Origin: Eubacteriales bacterium
GTDB lineage: Bacteria > Bacillota > Clostridia > Tissierellales > Dethiosulfatibacteraceae
Assembly: GCA_030694905.1 (NCBI GenBank)
Contig: JAUYTY010000024.1
Coordinates: 1 to 41,448, forward strand
DNA length: 41,448 nt
Direction: 5' to 3'
Positions 7,991 through 41,448 of the stretch are shown here, in pieces. Both the position numbers and the translations under genes were made by a program. The notes beneath the pieces are model-generated. The model searched no databases and had not been told where the DNA came from. It saw nothing but the letters and a program-made list of their open reading frames with translations. Positions within the stretch are counted from its first letter, which is position 1. Each line of letters begins with the position of its first letter.

Positions 7991-8023
7991 TTTCTTACAA
8001 AAAATTAATTGTTGAAAAAGCTA

Positions 8024-8051
8024 TTGTTTATAAGGTGTGATATGATATACT
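8024..8051 (+). promoter_or_regulatory. Extended -10 promoter of the lipoprotein gene
   Basis: TTGTTT, 16-bp spacer, TGATATACT (TGn extension plus TATACT). The transcript would start near 8058, 44 nt before the ATG. Confidence 0.6.
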
Positions 8052-8101
8052 AATCAATGGACAAAATTTTAGCATTTAGCAATATTAAACCAGGAGAATT
8101 T

Positions 8102-8482
8102 ATGAAACGGATAAGAAAAATTGGTTTCCTGACATTGATACTGATAACTGTTGTTTTAACAGCATGTGCTGGTGGAAGACATAAAATACAGAATGGGAAA
8201 ATATATGATGAGGCAGGTTTGCTTCAAGGAGACTACGGGCTGTTCAATGGCAGCTATTACAAGACGCTTGAACTAAAGGAAGGCAGCCGAATAATATTTG
8301 GGTATGCCGTTGGCACCATGGCCGGTGAGTTGACAGCTTATTTTGGAGATAAAAAAGGCGACAATAAAATCGAGATAGAAGATAGTCTGATTTATGAGAT
8401 TCAAGAGACGGGCTCTTATCGGATAGAAGTTGTCGGGAAGGATCATTCAGGTGCTTTTGCTATAGAATGGGAACTGGATTGA
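8102..8482 (+). CDS. Small lipoprotein, unknown function
   Basis: The ATG at 8102 has CAGGAGAATT upstream and gives a classic lipoprotein signal: MKRIRKIGF, a hydrophobic stretch and the lipobox LTAC (cysteine at residue 20). The longer frame from 8057 lacks a ribosome site and buries the signal. The mature part (about 107 residues) looks beta-rich: GSYYKTLELKEGSRIIFGY, ELTAYFGDKKG, SYRIEVVGKDHSGAFAIEWEL, reminiscent of small extracellular beta-sandwich domains found in clostridial lipoproteins. It is predicted to sit on the outer face of the cytoplasmic membrane. It is monocistronic with its own promoter and terminator. Confidence 0.8.
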   Translation: MKRIRKIGFLTLILITVVLTACAGGRHKIQNGKIYDEAGLLQGDYGLFNGSYYKTLELKEGSRIIFGYAVGTMAGELTAYFGDKKGDNKIEIEDSLIYEIQETGSYRIEVVGKDHSGAFAIEWELD

Positions 8483-8573: not shown

Positions 8574-8702
8574 AAGATGACTAACAGTGCTAAGACTCCC
8601 ACTTCTATAAAGTGGGAGACAAGCACTGTATAGTCCCTGGATAACGGTTTCTAAGGTTCAGATGGCGTTTCAAACACCACCTGAGCCAAGAACCCTGTTG
8701 AT
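8574..8702 (+). mobile_element. 129-bp palindromic element, copy A (divergent)
   Basis: This copy is preceded by TTTAT (8569-8573) and ends ...CCTGTTGAT. It has the same two hairpins as the other copies but the most changes: AAGATGAC instead of CCGATGAC at the left end, an extra A in the first hairpin, a missing base at ...GAGCCAAG, and several unpaired substitutions in the second stem. This points to an older insertion. It carries no ORF. Its right end lies 24 bp before the start codon of the SLC13 transporter, so it occupies that gene's upstream region. Confidence 0.85.
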
Positions 8703-30700: not shown

Positions 30701-30829
30701 CCGATGACTAACAGTGCTAAGACTCCCACTTCTATAAGTGGGAGATAAGCACTGTAGAGTCCCTGGATAACGGTCTCTAAGGTTCAGGTGGTGTTTCAAA
30801 CACCATCTGAACCCAAGAACCCTGTTGAT
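30701..30829 (+). mobile_element. 129-bp palindromic element, copy B
   Basis: Preceded by TTTAT (30696-30700), starting CCGATGACTAACAGTGCT and ending CCCTGTTGAT. Hairpin 1: ACAGTGCT/AGCACTGT outside CTCCCACTT/AAGTGGGAG with a CTAT loop. Hairpin 2: GGTTCAG/CTGAACC outside TGGTGTT/AACACCA. ATAACGG can pair with the 3' end CCTGTTGAT around hairpin 2. No ORF belongs to the element, but on the minus strand its right part encodes the last residues of the neighbouring flavoprotein. The left end follows the upstream operon terminator by about 40 bp. Confidence 0.92.
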
Positions 30830-33605: not shown

Positions 33606-33734
33606 CCGATGACTAACAGTGCTAAGACTCCCACTTCTATAAGTGGGAGATAAGCACTGTAGAGTCCCTGGATAACGGTCTCTAAGGTTCAGGTGGTGTT
33701 TCAAACACCATCTGAACCCAAGAACCCTGTTGAT
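33606..33734 (+). mobile_element. 129-bp palindromic element, copy C
   Basis: Almost identical to copy B across 129 bp and preceded by TTTAT (33601-33605), right after the T-run of the ncRNA terminator. It ends CCTGTTGAT at 33734, 52 bp before the CoA-transferase start, so the element would be part of that gene's 5' region if transcription comes from upstream. Confidence 0.92.
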
Positions 33735-33785: not shown

Positions 33786-35261
33786 ATGCTGGATGGAAGA
33801 ATCAGATGCAAGGCCTTGAACCACAAAATAATGACAGCAAAAGAAGCCGCGGAACTGATAAAGGATGGTATGATAGTAGGCGCCAGTGGATTTACACCGG
33901 CAGGTTATCCTAAAGCGGTCCCGTTGGCCTTGGCCCAAAGAGCTGAAGACGGAGAAGAAATCAAGATAACCTTGATTACAGGCGCATCTGTCGGAGACGA
34001 GCTTGATGGTGCACTGGTCAGGTCAGGTGTGATAGCAAGAAGATACCCCTATCAAACAGATGCTTCAATGAGGGATGCCATCAATAACGGGTCTGTCAAA
34101 TATTCGGATATGCATTTAAGTCATGTACCGCAATGGATAAAATATGGTTTTTTTGGGAAAATAGACGTGGCGATCATTGAAGCTGTGGGAATAACAGAAG
34201 AAGGGGGAATAATACCATCAACCTCTATTGGCAATTCAAATGTATTGGTTGAAATGGCTGAGATGGTGATTGTTGAAATAAACACATCCCAACCGGAAGA
34301 ACTGGAGGGAATCCATGATATATATAGTGTGGAAAAACCACCGAATAGAAAAGCGATACCTATTTACAAGCCCGAAGATAGAATAGGAACTACCTATATT
34401 CCCTGCAATCCTGAAAAAATCAAAGCGGTTGTCTATTCAGATATCATTGATAAGACTAGAGATGTGGCGCCAATCGATGACGATTCAAGAAAAATTTCCA
34501 GTCATATCATCAAATTCCTATATGATGAAAAGATGGCAGGTAGAATTCCAGAAGAACTGCTACCATTGCAGTCTGGAGTTGGTAGCGTTGCCAATGCCAT
34601 ACTCGGCGGATTATGTGAATGTGATTTTAAAAATCTGACAATATACTCGGAGGTTTTACAGGATTCGGTACTTGATCTGATAGACGCTGGAAAGGTTGAT
34701 TTCGCTTCAGCAACATCACTGACCATTTCACCCTCGAGATTGGATGACTTCTATAAGAATTTTGGAAAGTACAGAGACAAAATAATTCTAAGGCCACAGG
34801 AAATCAGCAACAACCCGGAGGTTATCAGAAGGCTTGGCGTCATAGCGATGAACACCGCAATAGAATTCGATATCTACGGAAATGTAAACTCCACCAACAT
34901 TGGTGGCACAAGAATGATGAACGGCATCGGAGGCTCGGGTGATTTTACTCGCAACGGTTATATCTCGATATTCACAACAGTTTCCACAGCAAAAAATGGC
35001 AAGATCTCCAGTATTGTGCCATTCGTCAGGCATGTGGACCACACAGAGCATGATGTTCAAGTCGTGGTAACGGAACAAGGCCTGGCTGATTTAAGAGGTC
35101 TTAGTCCATCTGAGAGAGCAGATCTGATTATTGAGAAGTGCGTCCATCCGGATTTTAAGGATCAATTGAGGGATTACGTCGCAAGAGCAAAAAATACATC
35201 TAAATACCTACACACCCCTCATGATTTCGAAACAGTTTTTTTAGATTTCTCCGATGACTAA
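33786..35261 (+). CDS. Acetyl-CoA hydrolase/transferase family, succinyl-CoA:acetate-type CoA-transferase
   Basis: The 491-residue class I CoA-transferase has the N-terminal GASGFTPAGYPKAVPLAL domain, the catalytic glutamate in IYSEVLQD (E289; E294 in Acetobacter AarC), the FDIYGNVNSTNIGGTRMMNG and GSGDFTRNGY glycine loops, and VVTEQGLADLRGLSP. It resembles Cat1/ScpC/AarC, moving CoA between succinyl- or propionyl-CoA and acetate; exact donor is inferred. Position before the methylmalonyl-CoA mutase genes supports a propionate/succinate route. TTTGGAGGT precedes the ATG. The last residues SDD and the stop codon lie at the first bases of element copy D, so the original C-terminus was altered. 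Confidence 0.9.
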   Translation: MLDGRIRCKALNHKIMTAKEAAELIKDGMIVGASGFTPAGYPKAVPLALAQRAEDGEEIKITLITGASVGDELDGALVRSGVIARRYPYQTDASMRDAINNGSVKYSDMHLSHVPQWIKYGFFGKIDVAIIEAVGITEEGGIIPSTSIGNSNVLVEMAEMVIVEINTSQPEELEGIHDIYSVEKPPNRKAIPIYKPEDRIGTTYIPCNPEKIKAVVYSDIIDKTRDVAPIDDDSRKISSHIIKFLYDEKMAGRIPEELLPLQSGVGSVANAILGGLCECDFKNLTIYSEVLQDSVLDLIDAGKVDFASATSLTISPSRLDDFYKNFGKYRDKIILRPQEISNNPEVIRRLGVIAMNTAIEFDIYGNVNSTNIGGTRMMNGIGGSGDFTRNGYISIFTTVSTAKNGKISSIVPFVRHVDHTEHDVQVVVTEQGLADLRGLSPSERADLIIEKCVHPDFKDQLRDYVARAKNTSKYLHTPHDFETVFLDFSDD

Positions 35262-35379
35262 CAGTGCTAAGACTCCCACTTCTATAAGTGGGAGATACGC
35301 ACTGTACTGTCTCTGGATAACGGTCTCTAAGGTTCAGGTGGTGTTTCAAACACCATCTGAACCCAAGAACCCTGTTGAT
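35251..35379 (+). mobile_element. 129-bp palindromic element, copy D
   Basis: Starts CCGATGACTAACAGTGCT after TTTCT (a variant of the TTTAT target) and ends CCTGTTGAT. It overlaps the end of the CoA-transferase gene: GATGACTAA supplies Asp-Asp and the stop. A few changes lie between the two hairpins (GATACGC, CTGTCTCTGG), one of which breaks a base pair in the outer stem of hairpin 1. It separates the CoA-transferase from the mutase operon. Confidence 0.92.
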
Positions 35380-35388
35380 AAGCAACTC

Positions 35389-35431
35389 GCAAGATTTAAA
35401 ATAAATAAATCATTTTTGCATTAAATCTTGC
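35389..35431 (+). repeat. 11-bp inverted repeat at the mutase promoter
   Basis: GCAAGATTTAA (35389-35399) and TTAAATCTTGC (35421-35431) are perfect inverted arms with a 21-bp spacer. The right arm overlaps the -35 hexamer of the predicted mutase promoter, which suggests an operator or a regulatory hairpin. Confidence 0.6.
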
Positions 35432-35456
35432 ATTTCAAAGGCTTTTAATATAGATT
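35428..35456 (+). promoter_or_regulatory. Candidate promoter of the mutase operon
   Basis: TTGCAT, 17-bp spacer, TAGATT; ATG with GGAGGT follows 35 bp later. Confidence 0.45.
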
Positions 35457-35490
35457 AAATATGATAAATGTACATTTGGAGGTATAATTG

Positions 35491-37170
35491 ATGTTTGACA
35501 AAGAGAAATTTGAGCAATTAAAAGTGGCTAGAAAAAATTGGGAAGATAAGGACCTGAACAAATCACTTGCCAGATCACCTGAGAGAAAAGAAGCGTTTAA
35601 AACTGGATCAGGCGATATAGTTGAAAGATTGTATACACCTGAAGATATTAATGATTTGGATTATATGGAGGAAATTGGTTTACCGGGTCAATATCCTTAT
35701 ACACGTGGCTATCAACCTACGATGTATAGAGGCAGATTGTGGACAATGAGAATGTATGCCGGTTTCTCAACGGCAGAAGAATCAAATAAACGTTACAAAT
35801 TCCTGGTTGATCAGGGATCAACAGGACTGTCAGTCGCTTTTGACCTTCCTACCCAGATCGGCTATGACTCGGATCATCCACTGGCTGAGGGAGAAGTTGG
35901 CAAGGTGGGTGTCGCCATAGATTCTTTAGCGGATATGGAGATTCTCTTTGACGGCATAAATCTGGAGAAAGTCAGCACATCCATGACGATAAACTCTCCC
36001 GCATCTGTTCTGTTGGCGATGTATATTGCTGTTGCTGATAAGCAAGGCGTATCTCCTGAGAAACTAAGAGGGACTATTCAGAATGATATCCTCAAGGAAT
36101 ACATAGCGAGGGGAACATATATCTACCCCACAGAAGAATCAATGAGACTCATAACAGACATATTTGAATACTGCTCAAAAAACGTTCCTCAGTGGAACAC
36201 TATCAGCATTTCCGGATACCATATTAGGGAAGCAGGCTCCACAGCCGCTCAAGAAGTCGGATTTACTTTGGCTGACGGTATAGCTTATGTGGAAGCTGCA
36301 ATCAAAGCCGGACTTGATGTGGATTCCTTTGCACCAAGATTGTCATTTTTCTTTAATGCGCATAACGATTTATTGGAAGAAGTCTCTAAATATAGAGCAG
36401 CCAGAAGACTGTGGGCGAAAATCATGAAAGAAAGGTTCAAGGCTAAGAACCCACAATCCATGATGCTAAAATTCCATACGCAGACAGGCGGATCAACCTT
36501 GACAGCACAGCAACCGGACAATAATATCGTTAGGGTTGCGATCCAGACGCTGGCAGCTGTGTTGGGAGGAACCCAATCTCTGCATACAAACTCCAAGGAT
36601 GAGGCGCTGGCCTTACCGACTGAGGACTCTGTTAGAATCGCGTTGAGAACACAACAAATTGTAGCCCATGAAAGTGGTGTCACCAATACAGTGGATCCAT
36701 TGGCCGGCTCATACTACATAGAAGCCAAAACTAAAGAGATTGAAGACAAGGCTATGGAATACATCACCAAAATAGACGAACTGGGCGGAGCGCCAAGGGC
36801 AATTGATGCCGGTTACATTCAAAAGGAAATCACAGACGCAGCCTATAAGTACCAGATGGATGTTGAAAAAGGTGACGTTGTGGTCGTTGGTATGAATAAA
36901 TTCAAGGTTGCTGAAAAAGCGCCGCAAGGCCTATTGAAGGTTGATCCGATGGTTGGAGAGATGCAGAAGAAGAAATTGGTTGAACTTAAAGCAAAAAGAG
37001 ATAATCAGGCAGTTACGGAAAAATTGACCGCCCTGAAGAAGGCATGTAAAGGCACTGAAAATCTTATGCCTTATATTGTGGAAGCCGTCAGGGAATATGC
37101 CACTTTAGGCGAGATATGCGATGTCATGAGAGAAGTTTTCGGCGAATACGAACAAAGCGTAATGCTTTAA
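35491..37170 (+). CDS. mcmA1: Methylmalonyl-CoA mutase, large (catalytic) subunit
   Basis: The 559-residue TIM-barrel subunit catalyses the B12-dependent rearrangement of methylmalonyl-CoA and succinyl-CoA. Key residues fall at the same numbers as in Propionibacterium: Y89 (in MRMYAGFST), R207 (in [10 protein letters not shown]) and H244 (in [11 protein letters not shown]). Tyr89 rather than Phe argues against isobutyryl-CoA mutase. There is no B12-binding domain at the C-terminus; it is supplied by the next gene, as in archaeal and many clostridial mutases. GGAGGT lies 7 bp before ATG 35491. The chaperone MeaB and the epimerase follow, making a complete succinyl-CoA/methylmalonyl-CoA module. 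Confidence 0.95.
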
Positions 37171-37203
37171 TATAAGTTGAGATTGATTCATTAGGAGGAA
37201 AAA

Positions 37204-37599
37204 ATGGACAAACCAATAAGAGTTTTAGTTGCTAAACCTGGTCTTGACGGACATGACAGAGGAGCGAAAATGATAGCCAGGGCATTAAGGGATGCAGGAA
37301 TGGAAGTCATTTATACAGGTTTAAGGCAAACGCCTGAACAAATAGTAGCAGCAGCGATTCAAGAGGACGTCGACATAATTGGCATGAGTATTTTATCCGG
37401 CGCGCATAATCATTTGTTTCCAAAGGTCATAGGATTATTAAAAGATCAAGACGCGGATGACATAATGGTTATAGCGGGTGGTGTAATACCTGAGGATGAC
37501 ATACCGGCATTGAAAGCAGCGGGAGTGGCTGCCATATTTACACCAGGTGCCTTGACAACTGAGATTGTTCAATTCATCAGAGACAATGTTAAACGATAA
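37204..37599 (+). CDS. mcmA2: Methylmalonyl-CoA mutase, small B12-binding subunit
   Basis: The 131-residue Rossmann domain has the base-off/His-on B12 motif DGHDRG (15-20; H17 is the cobalt ligand), the SILSGAHNH loop and IAGGVIP plus [10 protein letters not shown] for the nucleotide tail. It associates with the large subunit encoded 33 bp upstream to form the active mutase. GGAGG precedes the ATG. Length and motifs are normal for the separate B12 subunit. Confidence 0.95.
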
Positions 37600-37620
37600 A
37601 GACATTAAGGCGATGATTCA

Positions 37621-38553
37621 ATGGAATTGATTAATAAGATGCTTAAAGGGGATAAGAGAGCCTGTGCCCGCCTTATCTCCATCGTTGAGAATGACGAAAA
37701 AGAATCAGAAAAGCTGATAAAAAAAATATATAGATTCACAGGAAAAGCACATATCGTAGGGATAACAGGACCTCCCGGTGCTGGCAAAAGCACGCTGACC
37801 GACAAATATGTCAAGCTATTAAGAAAAAGCGATTACAAAGTGGGTGTCATAGCTGTTGATCCAACCAGCCCTTATACCGGTGGCGCTATTCTTGGTGATA
37901 GGATCAGAATGAACGATCTGGCCCTCGATCCCGGCGTTTTTATCAGAAGTATGGGAACGAGAGGTTATCTGGGTGGCTTGGCAAAGGCTACCAGAAATGC
38001 CGTTAAAATTCTGGATGCATATGGATGTGACTATATCATCATAGAAACCGTTGGCGTGGGGCAATCTGAGGTTGATATCGTAAAAGCCGCGGATACGGTC
38101 GTATTGGTGATGGTTCCAGGCCTTGGAGACGATATTCAATCCATCAAGGCTGGCATTATGGAAATAGGCGATTTGTTCGTTGTGAATAAGAGCGATCTTT
38201 TTGGCGCCCAAAGAACAGCGACAGAAATCAATATGATGCTGGATATGAGCCCAAAAACAGATAGAAGGCCACCTGTCGTGATGGTTACTGCAAATCAGAA
38301 CAAGAATATTGAGCAGATGGAACTGGAAATTCAGAAACATTATCATTACCTGGTTGACAATGGTCTCTTGGAAGAAAGAAGAAAAAAGAACATCAAAAGA
38401 GAGCTTCTTGAGTTGGTTGAAGAAGAGCTGAAAAAGCTTGTGATAAGAGAGACGGAAAACAACGGGGAATTGGACAGTATGACAGAAAGCCTCTTTAACA
38501 AGGAGACAGATCCTTTTACGTTAAGGGATACGTTGCTGTCAAGAATAAAATAA
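37621..38553 (+). CDS. meaB: MeaB/ArgK-type mutase chaperone GTPase
   Basis: The 310-residue G3E GTPase has Walker A GPPGAGKS (50-57), the base-recognition motif NKSD and a C-terminal helical dimerisation region (LLEERRKKNIKRELLELVEE). MeaB gates B12 loading and protects methylmalonyl-CoA mutase from inactivation. It lies 21 bp after the small subunit gene. All motifs expected for a functional GTPase are intact, including the IVDVDPSSP-like switch seen as VDPTSPYTGGAILGDR. Confidence 0.95.
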   Translation: MELINKMLKGDKRACARLISIVENDEKESEKLIKKIYRFTGKAHIVGITGPPGAGKSTLTDKYVKLLRKSDYKVGVIAVDPTSPYTGGAILGDRIRMNDLALDPGVFIRSMGTRGYLGGLAKATRNAVKILDAYGCDYIIIETVGVGQSEVDIVKAADTVVLVMVPGLGDDIQSIKAGIMEIGDLFVVNKSDLFGAQRTATEINMMLDMSPKTDRRPPVVMVTANQNKNIEQMELEIQKHYHYLVDNGLLEERRKKNIKRELLELVEEELKKLVIRETENNGELDSMTESLFNKETDPFTLRDTLLSRIK

Positions 38554-38567
38554 ACAAAGGAGAACAC

Positions 38568-38969
38568 ATGGTTACGAAAATTGATCACATAGGCGTTGCG
38601 GTAAAAAACCTGGAAGAATCGCTGAAATTTTATCGGGAAACTCTCGGATTGGACCTGCAAGGTGTTGAAATTGTAGAAGAACAAAAGGTAAAGGTAGCGT
38701 TTTTACCTATAGGTGATACAGAAATAGAACTGCTCGAATCAACTGATCCTGACGGTCCTATTGCAAAGTATATTGATAAAAAGGGCGAAGGGGTTCAACA
38801 CATCGCCTATAGGGTTGATGATATAGAGATGGCTATCGCTGACATGCTATCAAAGGGTGTCAAGATGATTGATGAAAAACCACGATACGGAGCAGGCGGG
38901 GCGAAGATAGCCTTTTGCCATCCCAAAAGCACCAATGGTGTTTTGGTTGAGCTTTGCCAGAGAGATTAA
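38568..38969 (+). CDS. mce: Methylmalonyl-CoA epimerase
   Basis: The 133-residue vicinal-oxygen-chelate protein has the metal ligands at the expected places: KIDHIGVAV (H7), IELLES, GEGVQHIAYRVDD and a final LVELCQ. It interconverts the S and R forms of methylmalonyl-CoA, linking the mutase to carboxyl transfer or decarboxylation. AAAGGAG precedes the ATG, 14 bp after meaB. It ends the operon, just before a strong terminator. Confidence 0.95.
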   Translation: MVTKIDHIGVAVKNLEESLKFYRETLGLDLQGVEIVEEQKVKVAFLPIGDTEIELLESTDPDGPIAKYIDKKGEGVQHIAYRVDDIEMAIADMLSKGVKMIDEKPRYGAGGAKIAFCHPKSTNGVLVELCQRD

Positions 38970-38984
38970 GAAGAAAGAAAATAA

Positions 38985-39026
38985 AAAACGCCGGATCAGT
39001 TTAGTTCTGATAACCGGCGTTTTTAG
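38985..39026 (+). terminator. Terminator of the mutase operon
   Basis: AAAACGCCGG with CCGGCGTTTT, plus TCAG/CTGA inside, then T-run. Its left A-run also allows use by the convergent DUF1858 gene. Confidence 0.9.
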
Positions 39027-39034
39027 TTGTCATA

Positions 39035-39220
39035 TTATGCGTTCAAGCTCTTTAATAACTCGTCAAGATCTAATCCATGAACAGCAGCTGCCTGCTCTAA
39101 TGTTTCCATTTGAGATGATGGACAGCCAATGCAACCCATACCATATTGAAACAATATCTCTGCAGATTCTGGTTTTTCTCTGAGAACTTGTCCTATATAC
39201 ATATCTTTACTAATAGTCAT
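39035..39220 (-). CDS. DUF1858 redox-disulfide domain protein
   Basis: The 61-residue protein matches the DUF1858 (hybrid-cluster-protein-associated redox disulfide) domain: VLREKPESAEILFQYGMGC, the CIGC pair (C30, C33) and an ALxxAAxxHGLDLDELLKSLN-type helix (here LEQAAAVHGLDLDELLKSLN). It is a small cytoplasmic protein found in anaerobes, probably a redox or metal-sensing partner; the exact role is unknown. GGAGGTAAC precedes the ATG. It is convergent with the epimerase gene and divergent from the PucR-type regulator. Confidence 0.85.
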   Translation of the reverse strand: MTISKDMYIGQVLREKPESAEILFQYGMGCIGCPSSQMETLEQAAAVHGLDLDELLKSLNA

Positions 39221-39249
39221 AAGTTACCTCCTTTATTGTATTCTATGAT

Positions 39250-39278
39250 ATTATAATACAGAGGTTATTATAAGTCAA
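39250..39278 (-). promoter_or_regulatory. Promoter of the DUF1858 gene
   Basis: Minus strand: TTGACT (39278-39273), 17-bp spacer, TATAAT (39255-39250), about 30 bp upstream of the ATG. Confidence 0.7.
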
Positions 39279-39346
39279 AATATTTAGAAAATGATATTCG
39301 GGAAAATGATGTTATTTTAAATCATATTTAACAATGCGTCATATTA

Positions 39347-39371
39347 ATCCTAATTCATTTTTGAATAGGAT
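39347..39371. repeat. Inverted repeat in the DUF1858/PucR spacer
   Basis: ATCCTA-A-TTCA-TTTT-TGAA-TAGGAT: 10 paired bases with one bulged A. It could be an operator. The 334-bp spacer 39221-39554 otherwise shows only the two promoters. Confidence 0.4.
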
Positions 39372-39452
39372 AATGCAATTTTTAAACCCTTTTTAAAGCG
39401 TTTGTGTGTTGTGATTTTTCATACACTTGTCGTTTAAGTTGCCGAATTGATG

Positions 39453-39481
39453 TTGATGGTAACTAATTAGTATGCTAAAAT
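39453..39481 (+). promoter_or_regulatory. Candidate promoter of the PucR-type regulator
   Basis: TTGATG, 17-bp spacer, TAAAAT, 73 bp before the ATG. Confidence 0.4.
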
Positions 39482-39554
39482 TATTACATATAGTTCTTTG
39501 CTTTTCCATGAAATGAAAAAGTTTTTGACACTATTCAATTAAGGAGATGAACGA

Positions 39555-41153
39555 ATGAGCACTTCAGTTAAAAGCATATTAGAGTTGCCTATTATGCAAG
39601 AAAACAGTAGATTACTCACTAACACAGGCGAAAACAACGACGTTCAGTTCGTTACAGTCATGGAGTCACCTGACTTTCGCTTGGCTAGCCTTGGTGAACA
39701 TATTTTTGTTTTAACAACACTATCTGCTCATCATAGTTCTTTAGAAGAGATTAACAGCATAGTTCGTGGCTTATGCGAGGTAAAGATTGCTGCCATTGGG
39801 ATAAAGATTGGTCGATATATTAAATGTATAGATGAATCAACGATACAAATAGCCAATGATCATAACGTAGCACTTATTGAATTGGATAACAACGTTTATT
39901 TTCGCGAAATTTTAAGAGAAACCCTTTCTGTTATTACTGGTAACCAACGCTTGAATCTTATCCGTATAAATGACGTTAATAAAGCTCTAATTGATTCTAT
40001 TTTACAGAATCGCACAATACAGGATTTTCTGAATCTTCTTTGTGCGCAAATAGACTGCTATTGCTGCTGCAATGATCAATCAGGCAAAAAAATAGCCGAA
40101 GCCTCGTCTCTGAGACTAGATTACGATACAAAGAAAGTAGACAATGCCATAAAACATTATTTCGAGAATTTCTCCGAAAAGGATAAATCGATTTACCAAG
40201 AAGAGAATATAATCATTTCCCCTTGCATTGTGCAGGAGAAAAGACTCGCAACAATTTGTATTGTTACGTTTGAAGTGCAAATTGACCTTGTTTATCTTTT
40301 TACGCAATCCATTATTAACGGAATAAGCATAAAATTTCTTGAGAAAAATCTGCAAGTACAGGCTGAACGAGAGCTAGAATTTTCAATTTTAAATGATATA
40401 CTTTTTTCCAAAAATTCTAATGCTGAGGTCATTGCAGACCGCCTTGATCTTTTAAACTTTACCCTTTACGAAAATAAATTAATGGTCATCCTGTCGCGTT
40501 TAGATTCAAAAAATGACAAATTTGGCTTTTATTCAACAGTTGATAATCTTAAAAAAATATTTACAGCGCAATTCGGTTCTGCAATCGCTTTTAAGAGAAA
40601 AAATGAGCATGTAATTCTCGTTTCTCATGAAACAATTAGCAATGCCAATAGCTTAAAAGACAGGTTGTATTTGTGTAAATCAGCAATTTCACGAACGGAA
40701 AGAGGTAAGTTTGATTTAGGGTGTAGCACGTCAGTTACGGAGTTGACGAAGATACCTGAATGCTATGACCAAGCCAAAAAAGCCATTAAATTCGGTCGTC
40801 AGATTGATACTGACGAGCATTTATACTTATATGATGATTATTTTGAATTAGGGTTAATATCATGCGGAATTGGTAGCAGTGATGCTAATATGTTTTTTCA
40901 ACGCATTGTTAATCCCATTCAAGAATACGATAAGAAGTTCAATTCTGAACTTTGGAGTACGCTTGAGATTAGTTTAATACAGGATAGACTTGAATTAATA
41001 GCAAGCACTCTTCACATTCATATTAGTACCCTTCGGTACAGGTTGCAGAAAATTGAAACAATTACTGGTTATAATTATTTCAAAACAAATGATCGTCTGA
41101 CACTTTACCTAGCATATCTCTTGTATAAGGTTTCTAATGTAAGCAAACAATAA
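39555..41153 (+). CDS. PucR-family transcriptional regulator
   Basis: The 532-residue protein has an N-terminal PucR domain (about 1-125; SVKSILELPIMQENSRLLTN, IAAIGIKIGRYI), a middle GGDEF-like/CdaR-type region (about 280-400) and a C-terminal PucR helix-turn-helix (HTH_30, about 470-525: LELIASTLHIHISTLRYRLQ). Members regulate purine, amino-acid or other nitrogen and carbon catabolic genes. Codon use is unusual: about 15 of 23 Arg codons are CGN, whereas neighbours such as meaB use almost only AGA/AGG. This suggests horizontal acquisition. AAGGAG precedes the ATG. No target gene is evident; the nearest are on the other side of a mobile element or divergent. Confidence 0.85.
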   Translation: MSTSVKSILELPIMQENSRLLTNTGENNDVQFVTVMESPDFRLASLGEHIFVLTTLSAHHSSLEEINSIVRGLCEVKIAAIGIKIGRYIKCIDESTIQIANDHNVALIELDNNVYFREILRETLSVITGNQRLNLIRINDVNKALIDSILQNRTIQDFLNLLCAQIDCYCCCNDQSGKKIAEASSLRLDYDTKKVDNAIKHYFENFSEKDKSIYQEENIIISPCIVQEKRLATICIVTFEVQIDLVYLFTQSIINGISIKFLEKNLQVQAERELEFSILNDILFSKNSNAEVIADRLDLLNFTLYENKLMVILSRLDSKNDKFGFYSTVDNLKKIFTAQFGSAIAFKRKNEHVILVSHETISNANSLKDRLYLCKSAISRTERGKFDLGCSTSVTELTKIPECYDQAKKAIKFGRQIDTDEHLYLYDDYFELGLISCGIGSSDANMFFQRIVNPIQEYDKKFNSELWSTLEISLIQDRLELIASTLHIHISTLRYRLQKIETITGYNYFKTNDRLTLYLAYLLYKVSNVSKQ

Positions 41154-41200: not shown

Positions 41201-41226
41201 TAACAATCAATCGAAATAAAATTTAT

Positions 41227-41261
41227 CCGATGACTAACAGTGCTAAGACTCCCACTTCTAT
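41227..41261 (+). mobile_element. Palindromic element, outer copy E, left part (interrupted)
   Basis: The first 35 bases of the element (CCGATGACTAACAGTGCT to CACTTCTAT), preceded by TTTAT. The element is interrupted exactly at the loop/stem border of hairpin 1 by a complete copy; its continuation is at 41391. Confidence 0.9.
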
Positions 41262-41390
41262 CCGATGACTAGCAGTGCTAAGACTCCCACTTCTATAAGT
41301 GGGAGATAAGCACTGTAGAGCCCCTGGATAACGGTTTCTAAGGTTCAGATGGCGTATGAAACGCTAACTGAATCCAAGAACCCTGTTGAT
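41262..41390 (+). mobile_element. 129-bp palindromic element, inner copy E (nested insertion)
   Basis: Complete copy from CCGATGACTAGCAGTGCT to CCCTGTTGAT, inserted after TTCTAT of the outer copy. Removing 129 bp restores the outer copy perfectly, so no target duplication was made. Its second hairpin has several changes (GGCGTATGAAACGCTAA, GAATCC) compared with the other copies. Confidence 0.92.
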
Positions 41391-41448
41391 AAGTGGGAGA
41401 TAAGCACTGTAGAGTCCCTGGATAACGGTTTCTAAGGTTCAGATGGCG
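41391..41448 (+). mobile_element. Palindromic element, outer copy E, right part (truncated by window edge)
   Basis: Continues the outer copy from AAGTGGGAGATAAGCACTGT through GGTTCAGATGGCG; the rest lies outside the window. Confidence 0.9.

What the first reader, a model, noticed from the sequence alone, without database searches (positions are those of the whole stretch)
41227..41448. Nested copy fixes the element ends and carries a self-family 'guide'
A complete copy sits inside another copy at the loop/stem border of hairpin 1. The host copy is restored exactly when 129 bp are removed, proving ends and absence of target duplication. The bases that follow the inner copy's right end are AAGTGGGAGATAAGCACTGT, a segment present in copies B and C and, with one change, D, each time directly after TTCTAT. 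If the right end acts as a guide-RNA scaffold, this copy would have a guide directed at the rest of its own family, with the same flanking motif.
Basis: partly seen in the sequence, partly recalled or inferred. Interest (0 to 1): 0.75.

Follow-up and report, generated by a model that had tools for sequence, protein, structure and literature searches.

The report
Hairpin mini-transposon nested in itself
A 129-base hairpin transposon without genes, scattered through this bacterium's genome, has jumped into the loop of another copy of itself, as it appears to have done at several other places; the proposed RNA-guide role has no support, because no guide-using enzyme was found in this genome.

Summary
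The nesting is in the sequence: TTTAT, host L (35 bp), a complete 129-bp copy (41262-41390), then 58 of 94 bp of host R. The window is a whole draft contig and ends there, so the host's last 36 bp are unseen.

In 52 sites the element sits 3' of a TTTAT-like motif and ends in (nearly always) TTGAT or a close variant, with no duplication. It has two hairpins; hairpin 1 matches the left end of a complete IS605 (tnpA+tnpB) in the same order. It is best filed as a PATE: a gene-less IS200/IS605 derivative moved in trans.

It is not unique: of 84 clusters, 18 carry two or three L in a row, 7 a second R, and 5 show insert plus host L and host R. The loop holds TTCTAT, close to the target; five nested cases are about 24-fold (TTTAT rate) or 177-fold (TTCTAT rate) above expectation.

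The guide reading is not supported: in a nested copy the flank is the host's right half by necessity, and no TnpB or Y1 TnpA was found in this 99%-complete draft. How L-L-R arrays form is open. An un-nested relative of any nested site was not found.

The parts
41222..41226 (+). target TTTAT before the outer copy
   Evidence: motif from 52 sites
41227..41261 (+). left unit L of the outer (host) copy, ends TTCTAT
41256..41261 (+). TTCTAT of the host's hairpin-1 loop, used as target by the inner copy
41262..41390 (+). complete inner copy, 129 bp (L 41262-41296, R 41297-41390)
41273..41315 (+). hairpin 1 of the inner copy
41333..41383 (+). hairpin 2 of the inner copy
41391..41448 (+).
8574..8702 (+). 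another copy of the family (changed first bases, one extra A after the loop)
30701..30829 (+). another copy; G001 keeps only about 14 bases of R here
33606..33734 (+). another copy, followed by a short R-end remnant to 33757; the G001 site is empty
35251..35379 (+). another copy, shared with G001 (L154)

Best explanation
A gene-less IS200/IS605-derived element (PATE) of 129 bp, moved in trans by a Y1 (HUH) TnpA as single-stranded DNA and pasted 3' of TTTAT without duplication. The loop of its left-end hairpin carries TTCTAT, near the preferred target, so new copies land in loops of resident copies more often than at other such sites. At 41227-41448 a copy did so and split the host into L and R; the 'guide' is the host's R. 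Shown here: ends, target motif, lack of duplication, hairpins, several nested copies. Inferred: TnpA as mover (from signature and left-end similarity), loop preference. Open: the origin of L-L-R arrays; nesting followed by loss of one of two adjacent R units is slightly favoured.
For: Ends and target: 52 sites in G000, -5 to -1 = T42 T41 T42 A41 T51 of 52, and 17 in G001. Empty sites in G001 for L096 and L003 without duplication. Hairpins: DNA fold -28.2 kcal/mol, z -7.5, 0 of 200 shuffles as good. Hairpin 1 matches 45 bp (87%) of the left end of an IS605 with tnpA and tnpB in G044, and 45 bp (89%) beside a tnpA fragment in G030. Nesting: 5 of 84 clusters show host L, insert and host R (L001, L004, L025, L117, L125). 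Rate: 5 nested against 0.2 expected at the TTTAT rate or 0.03 at the TTCTAT rate.
Against: No Y1 TnpA found in this genome. The R end has no recognised partner in the IS605 of G044 or G004 (seen by blastn). The window's outer copy is cut by the contig end. No un-nested relative of a nested site was found: the 1668 bp upstream of this locus gave no match in G001 or G002 (uninformative by its own note), and L169, which I first took for such a relative of L117, is in opposite orientation. Background rates are scaled from one 41-kb window and rest on one TTCTAT insertion. RNA covariation term is about zero.
Confidence: 0.75

Rival explanations
1. Tandem duplication: L and R multiply separately by slippage (short repeats TAT...TAT bound each L), so L-L-R-R is a double duplication and not an insertion.
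For: L-L-R with a single R is more common than nested L-L-R-R (18 clusters with several L, 7 with a second R). L005 is L-L-R in G000 and L-R in G001 with both flanks shared. Neighbouring Ls are slightly more alike than shuffled pairs, though not significantly (p 0.15 for 13 arrays, 0.09 for the 11 without deletions).
Against: The junction is always at the TAT that is also the insertion target; at L005 the R also changed from an older to a younger type; in L125 and L004 the inner and outer units differ in sequence.
Confidence: 0.25
2. L-L-R and L-L-L-R move as units: an enlarged element, using its outermost left end.
For: The L-L-L-R site L003 is empty in G001; several L goes with the young R type (7 of 13 young against 11 of 71 other clusters, p 0.005, rule chosen after seeing the data); L001, L003, L007 and L010 share a TAGCA variant in the L next to R.
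Against: The outer L lacks its own right arm; does not explain second R units.
Confidence: 0.3
3. The right end is a guide-RNA scaffold and the nested copy guides a TnpB against its own family.
For: Geometry would fit: the ISDra2 TnpB RNA ends with about 16 nt of flank and needs the insertion motif beside the target (PMC8612924, passages).
Against: No TnpB found; the match follows from nesting alone; R is 94 bp while the ISDra2 RNA is about 150 nt and includes the end of tnpB; no Rfam hit; 27 of 84 clusters still hold the exact target CCCACTTCTATAAGTGGGAG.
Confidence: 0.03
4. The junctions at contig 19's end are an assembly error between repeat copies.
For: The contig ends inside a repeat; contigs 19 and 3 share 82 bp, contigs 75 and 160 share 141 bp at their ends.
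Against: R-R junctions recur inside contigs (L004, L008, L125).
Confidence: 0.1

Closest known systems
PATEs (palindrome-associated transposable elements) of Haloquadratum walsbyi, PMC3119063 (passages)
   Same: No terminal inverted repeats, near-terminal palindromes, no target duplication, too short for a transposase; related to IS605 ends; core deletions; PATE-in-PATE insertions (6 counted there); recent movement where no intact IS200-type transposase was seen.
   Different: Here the nested insertions share one place, the hairpin-1 loop, which resembles the target, and arrays of several L before one R occur. No loop preference was seen in the passages I read.
IS605 of G044 and G004 (same order, same family)
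   Same: Left-end hairpin of G044 similar over 45 bp; tnpA and tnpB present.
   Different: Full elements with genes; right ends not recognisably alike.
BOX elements of Streptococcus pneumoniae, PMC3049150 (passages)
   Same: Modular short repeats with a variable number of one module; numbers differ between strains.
   Different: BOX has terminal inverted repeats and makes target duplications.
REP/REPIN and RAYT systems, e.g. PMC2817692 (search listing only)
   Same: Gene-less palindromes tied to a Y1-type transposase, sometimes in arrays.
   Different: Longer element with defined insertion ends. The long-frame Y1 genes fetched from G001 and G002 (L083, L084, L186) have no significant element match nearby; none found in G000.

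Membership tests
PATE / IS200-IS605-derived MITE | no target duplication | tested here: met
   52 + 17 sites share no base downstream; empty sites L096, L003
PATE / IS200-IS605-derived MITE | insertion 3' of a fixed tetra- or pentanucleotide | tested here: met
   TTTAT consensus; exact in 36 of 76 first-L flanks
PATE / IS200-IS605-derived MITE | near-terminal palindromes | tested here: met
   two hairpins
PATE / IS200-IS605-derived MITE | no terminal inverted repeats, too short for a transposase | tested here: met
   read from the 129-bp sequence
PATE / IS200-IS605-derived MITE | ends related to those of an IS605-type element | tested here: inconclusive
   left end similar; right end not recognised
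PATE / IS200-IS605-derived MITE | mobilised by a Y1 TnpA | not testable with these tools
   no TnpA found in this genome; needs an assay
TnpB guide-RNA (omega/reRNA) locus | TnpB in the genome | tested here: not met
TnpB guide-RNA (omega/reRNA) locus | RNA made from the right end into the flank and bound by TnpB | not testable with these tools
   needs RNA sequencing; no Rfam match
Classical MITE | terminal inverted repeats with target duplication | tested here: not met
BOX element | terminal inverted repeats and target duplication | tested here: not met

The most novel reading that the evidence does not exclude
The family once had a TnpB partner, now lost. A nested copy then carried a guide against every un-nested family member; cutting those, with a nested copy as repair template, copied the nested form from site to site (homing, akin to the plasmid gene drive of IS200/605 in PMC11870625). 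This would explain why nested and multi-L forms are common, why four share a variant inner L, and why the L-R site of G001 is L-L-R with a young R in G000 (L005).
Probability: 0.03. Interest if true: 0.85.

Novelty: new member of a known kind. Interest (0 to 1): 0.35.

Why it matters
An element whose left-end hairpin loop doubles as its own target offers a natural test of how IS200/IS605-type transposases choose targets (single-stranded loops, resident ends, base pairing), and of how gene-less repeats grow into modular arrays. It also warns against reading the flank of a nested copy as a guide: nesting alone makes flank and family match.

Tried and rejected
Rfam: nothing at gathering score in the window; in 9 loci at E up to 5, five hits, all below their families' gathering scores. 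Phage and plasmid records: no match to the 129-bp copy. Viral contigs: no exact 33-base hairpin. Orthologue of this locus: none found in G001 or G002. For L002 the G001 matches lie on different contigs, none spanning the site. Decayed tnpA of G001 C54: no significant element match beside it. L095 looked like an empty site in G001, but G001 keeps about 14 bases of R, so it was not counted. L117/L169: I first noted that L169 of G001 is the un-nested relative of nested L117; one search shows the two elements in opposite orientation in the same stretch, so that claim is withdrawn. Joining contigs 19 and 3 by their 82-bp overlap (which would give L-L-R-R-R) was considered and not claimed: a shared repeat explains it. 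Solo L with intact TTCTAT followed at once by flank was looked for by eye in the odd sites printed and not seen. Possible double counts in the 84 clusters: L092 and L105 share an identical 40-base flank; L009 and L021 may be two sides of one site; two of the three L119 units are a tandem duplication with flank.

Full report
What was checked. The window is the whole of contig 19 (41448 bp) of a 2.81-Mb draft in 221 contigs, 99.0% complete, 2.3% contamination. The finding lies at the contig's end: TTTAT, L (35 bp, 41227-41261, ending TTCTAT), a complete copy L-R (41262-41390), then 58 of 94 bp of a second R. Taking out 129 bp leaves L joined to R as in ordinary copies.

The family. Pattern searches in this genome (G000) found 90 L and 68 R matches with up to 3 mismatches and none for the reversed controls. 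From these and the blast hits I read 84 clusters. The census is not complete: one search scored 40 of 129 candidates, and more decayed copies are missed by the patterns. Two clusters (L092, L105) share a flank and may be one site. In 52 clusters with distinct flanks the bases -5 to -1 read T42 T41 T42 A41 T51, and no position after the element is dominated by one base; in three of the 52 the 5' flank is itself an L. Seventeen G001 sites agree. G001 is very probably MAG Clostridiales bacterium 38_11: its contig 35 and record LGGM01000076.1 have the same length and carry the element at the same place. In a search of 60 relatives only the three genomes of the genus have full-length copies; six others of the order match part of the left end. 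Two of those parts, in G044, begin with TTTAT-CCGAT like ours.

Type of element. Two hairpins fold strongly as single-stranded DNA (-28.2 kcal/mol, z -7.5, 0 of 200 shuffles as good). In 35 copies chosen by me from those fetched, 5 of 31 consensus pairs show a compensatory change, but the covariation term is about zero, so structure rests on conservation more than on covariation. Hairpin 1 matches 45 bp at 87% of the left end of an element in G044 that has tnpA and tnpB, and 45 bp at 89% beside a tnpA fragment in G030. Right ends are not recognisably related. Insertion 3' of a penta-nucleotide, hairpins and lack of duplication are the marks of IS200/IS605 elements (PMC7290912, passages) and of PATEs (PMC3119063, passages). 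No Y1 TnpA and no TnpB was found in G000, although 45 of 60 genomes have Y1 matches. The mover may be lost, or missing from the draft.

Nesting and arrays. Of 84 clusters 18 have two or three L in a row and 7 a second R (listed by hand; several are cut by contig ends). Five show an insert between host L and host R: this one, L004 (outer R internally deleted), L025 (inner copy internally deleted, outer R cut short), L125 (inner copy internally deleted, outer R complete) and L117 (inner remnant of 26-28 bases, outer R shortened). I found no un-nested relative of any of the five. L169 of G001, which I first took for one, lies in the same stretch as L117 but in opposite orientation. The upstream 1668 bp of the window's own locus gave no match in G001 or G002.

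Self-targeting. TTTAT precedes 36 of 76 first Ls; TTCTAT outside the family precedes one, L109. Scaled from the masked window there are about 14477 TTTAT and 2978 TTCTAT sites in the genome. Five nested cases in 84 clusters compare with 0.2 expected at the TTTAT rate (24-fold) or 0.03 at the TTCTAT rate (177-fold). The second figure rests on a single insertion. Tolerance of insertions in non-coding DNA might give some of this (inference). A preference for the loop is likely, not proven.

How L-L-R arises is open. For nesting with later loss of R: adjacent 94-bp R units should recombine more often than 35-bp L units (inference); at L005 G000 has L-L-R with a young R where G001 has L-R with an older R and the same flanks. 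For movement as a unit: the L-L-L-R site L003 is empty in G001, and several L goes with the young R type (7 of 13 against 11 of 71, p 0.005, rule chosen after seeing the data). For slippage: neighbouring Ls are a little more alike than shuffled pairs, not significantly (p 0.15 for 13 arrays; 0.09 for the 11 without deletions).

The guide. The ISDra2 TnpB RNA is about 150 nt, covers the end of tnpB and the right end, and finishes with about 16 nt of flank; the motif beside its target is the insertion motif (PMC8612924, passages). For any copy nested in its own family, flank and motif must therefore match the family. The observation follows from the nesting and is not evidence for a guide, and without TnpB in the genome the idea has no agent. 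Its bold form, past TnpB-driven homing of nested copies, is kept at 3%; a gene drive of this kind is reported for IS200/605 on plasmids (PMC11870625, abstract).

In print. Eight literature searches ran. None of the titles and abstracts listed describes insertion of an IS605-type PATE into its own hairpin loop; PMC3119063 counts 6 PATE-in-PATE insertions. The library holds open-licence PMC papers only and the lists were capped, so this is weak evidence.

Noticed in passing
G032 loci L034, L042, L047, L052, L056 (matches at 1501-1535): Another repeat with the same hairpin core (TAAGACTCCCACTTCTATAAGTGGGAG) at 14 listed places of a genome in another family of the order; four of the five loci fetched end within about 20 bases of the match, i.e. 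at contig ends.
   Followed up: no
G000:C197 about 7991-8452 (L119, L188): Three neighbouring units, each a deleted element; the second and third come with the same flank, a tandem duplication of element plus flank.
   Followed up: no
G001:C37 (L149, 268-410): A copy sits directly after an R remnant ending TTGAT, as if the right-end motif had served as target.
   Followed up: no
L117 (G000:C169) and L169 (G001:C57): The same intergenic stretch holds a copy in each genome, in opposite orientation: two independent insertions or an inversion.
   Followed up: partly
ends of contigs C75 and C160: Exact 141-bp overlap at two contig ends in an L-L-L-R array; 141 may be the assembler's word length (inference).
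   Followed up: partly
window 33786-41153: Neighbouring genes: acetyl-CoA hydrolase/transferase, methylmalonyl-CoA mutase, MeaB, a glyoxalase-like protein and a PucR regulator.
   Followed up: no
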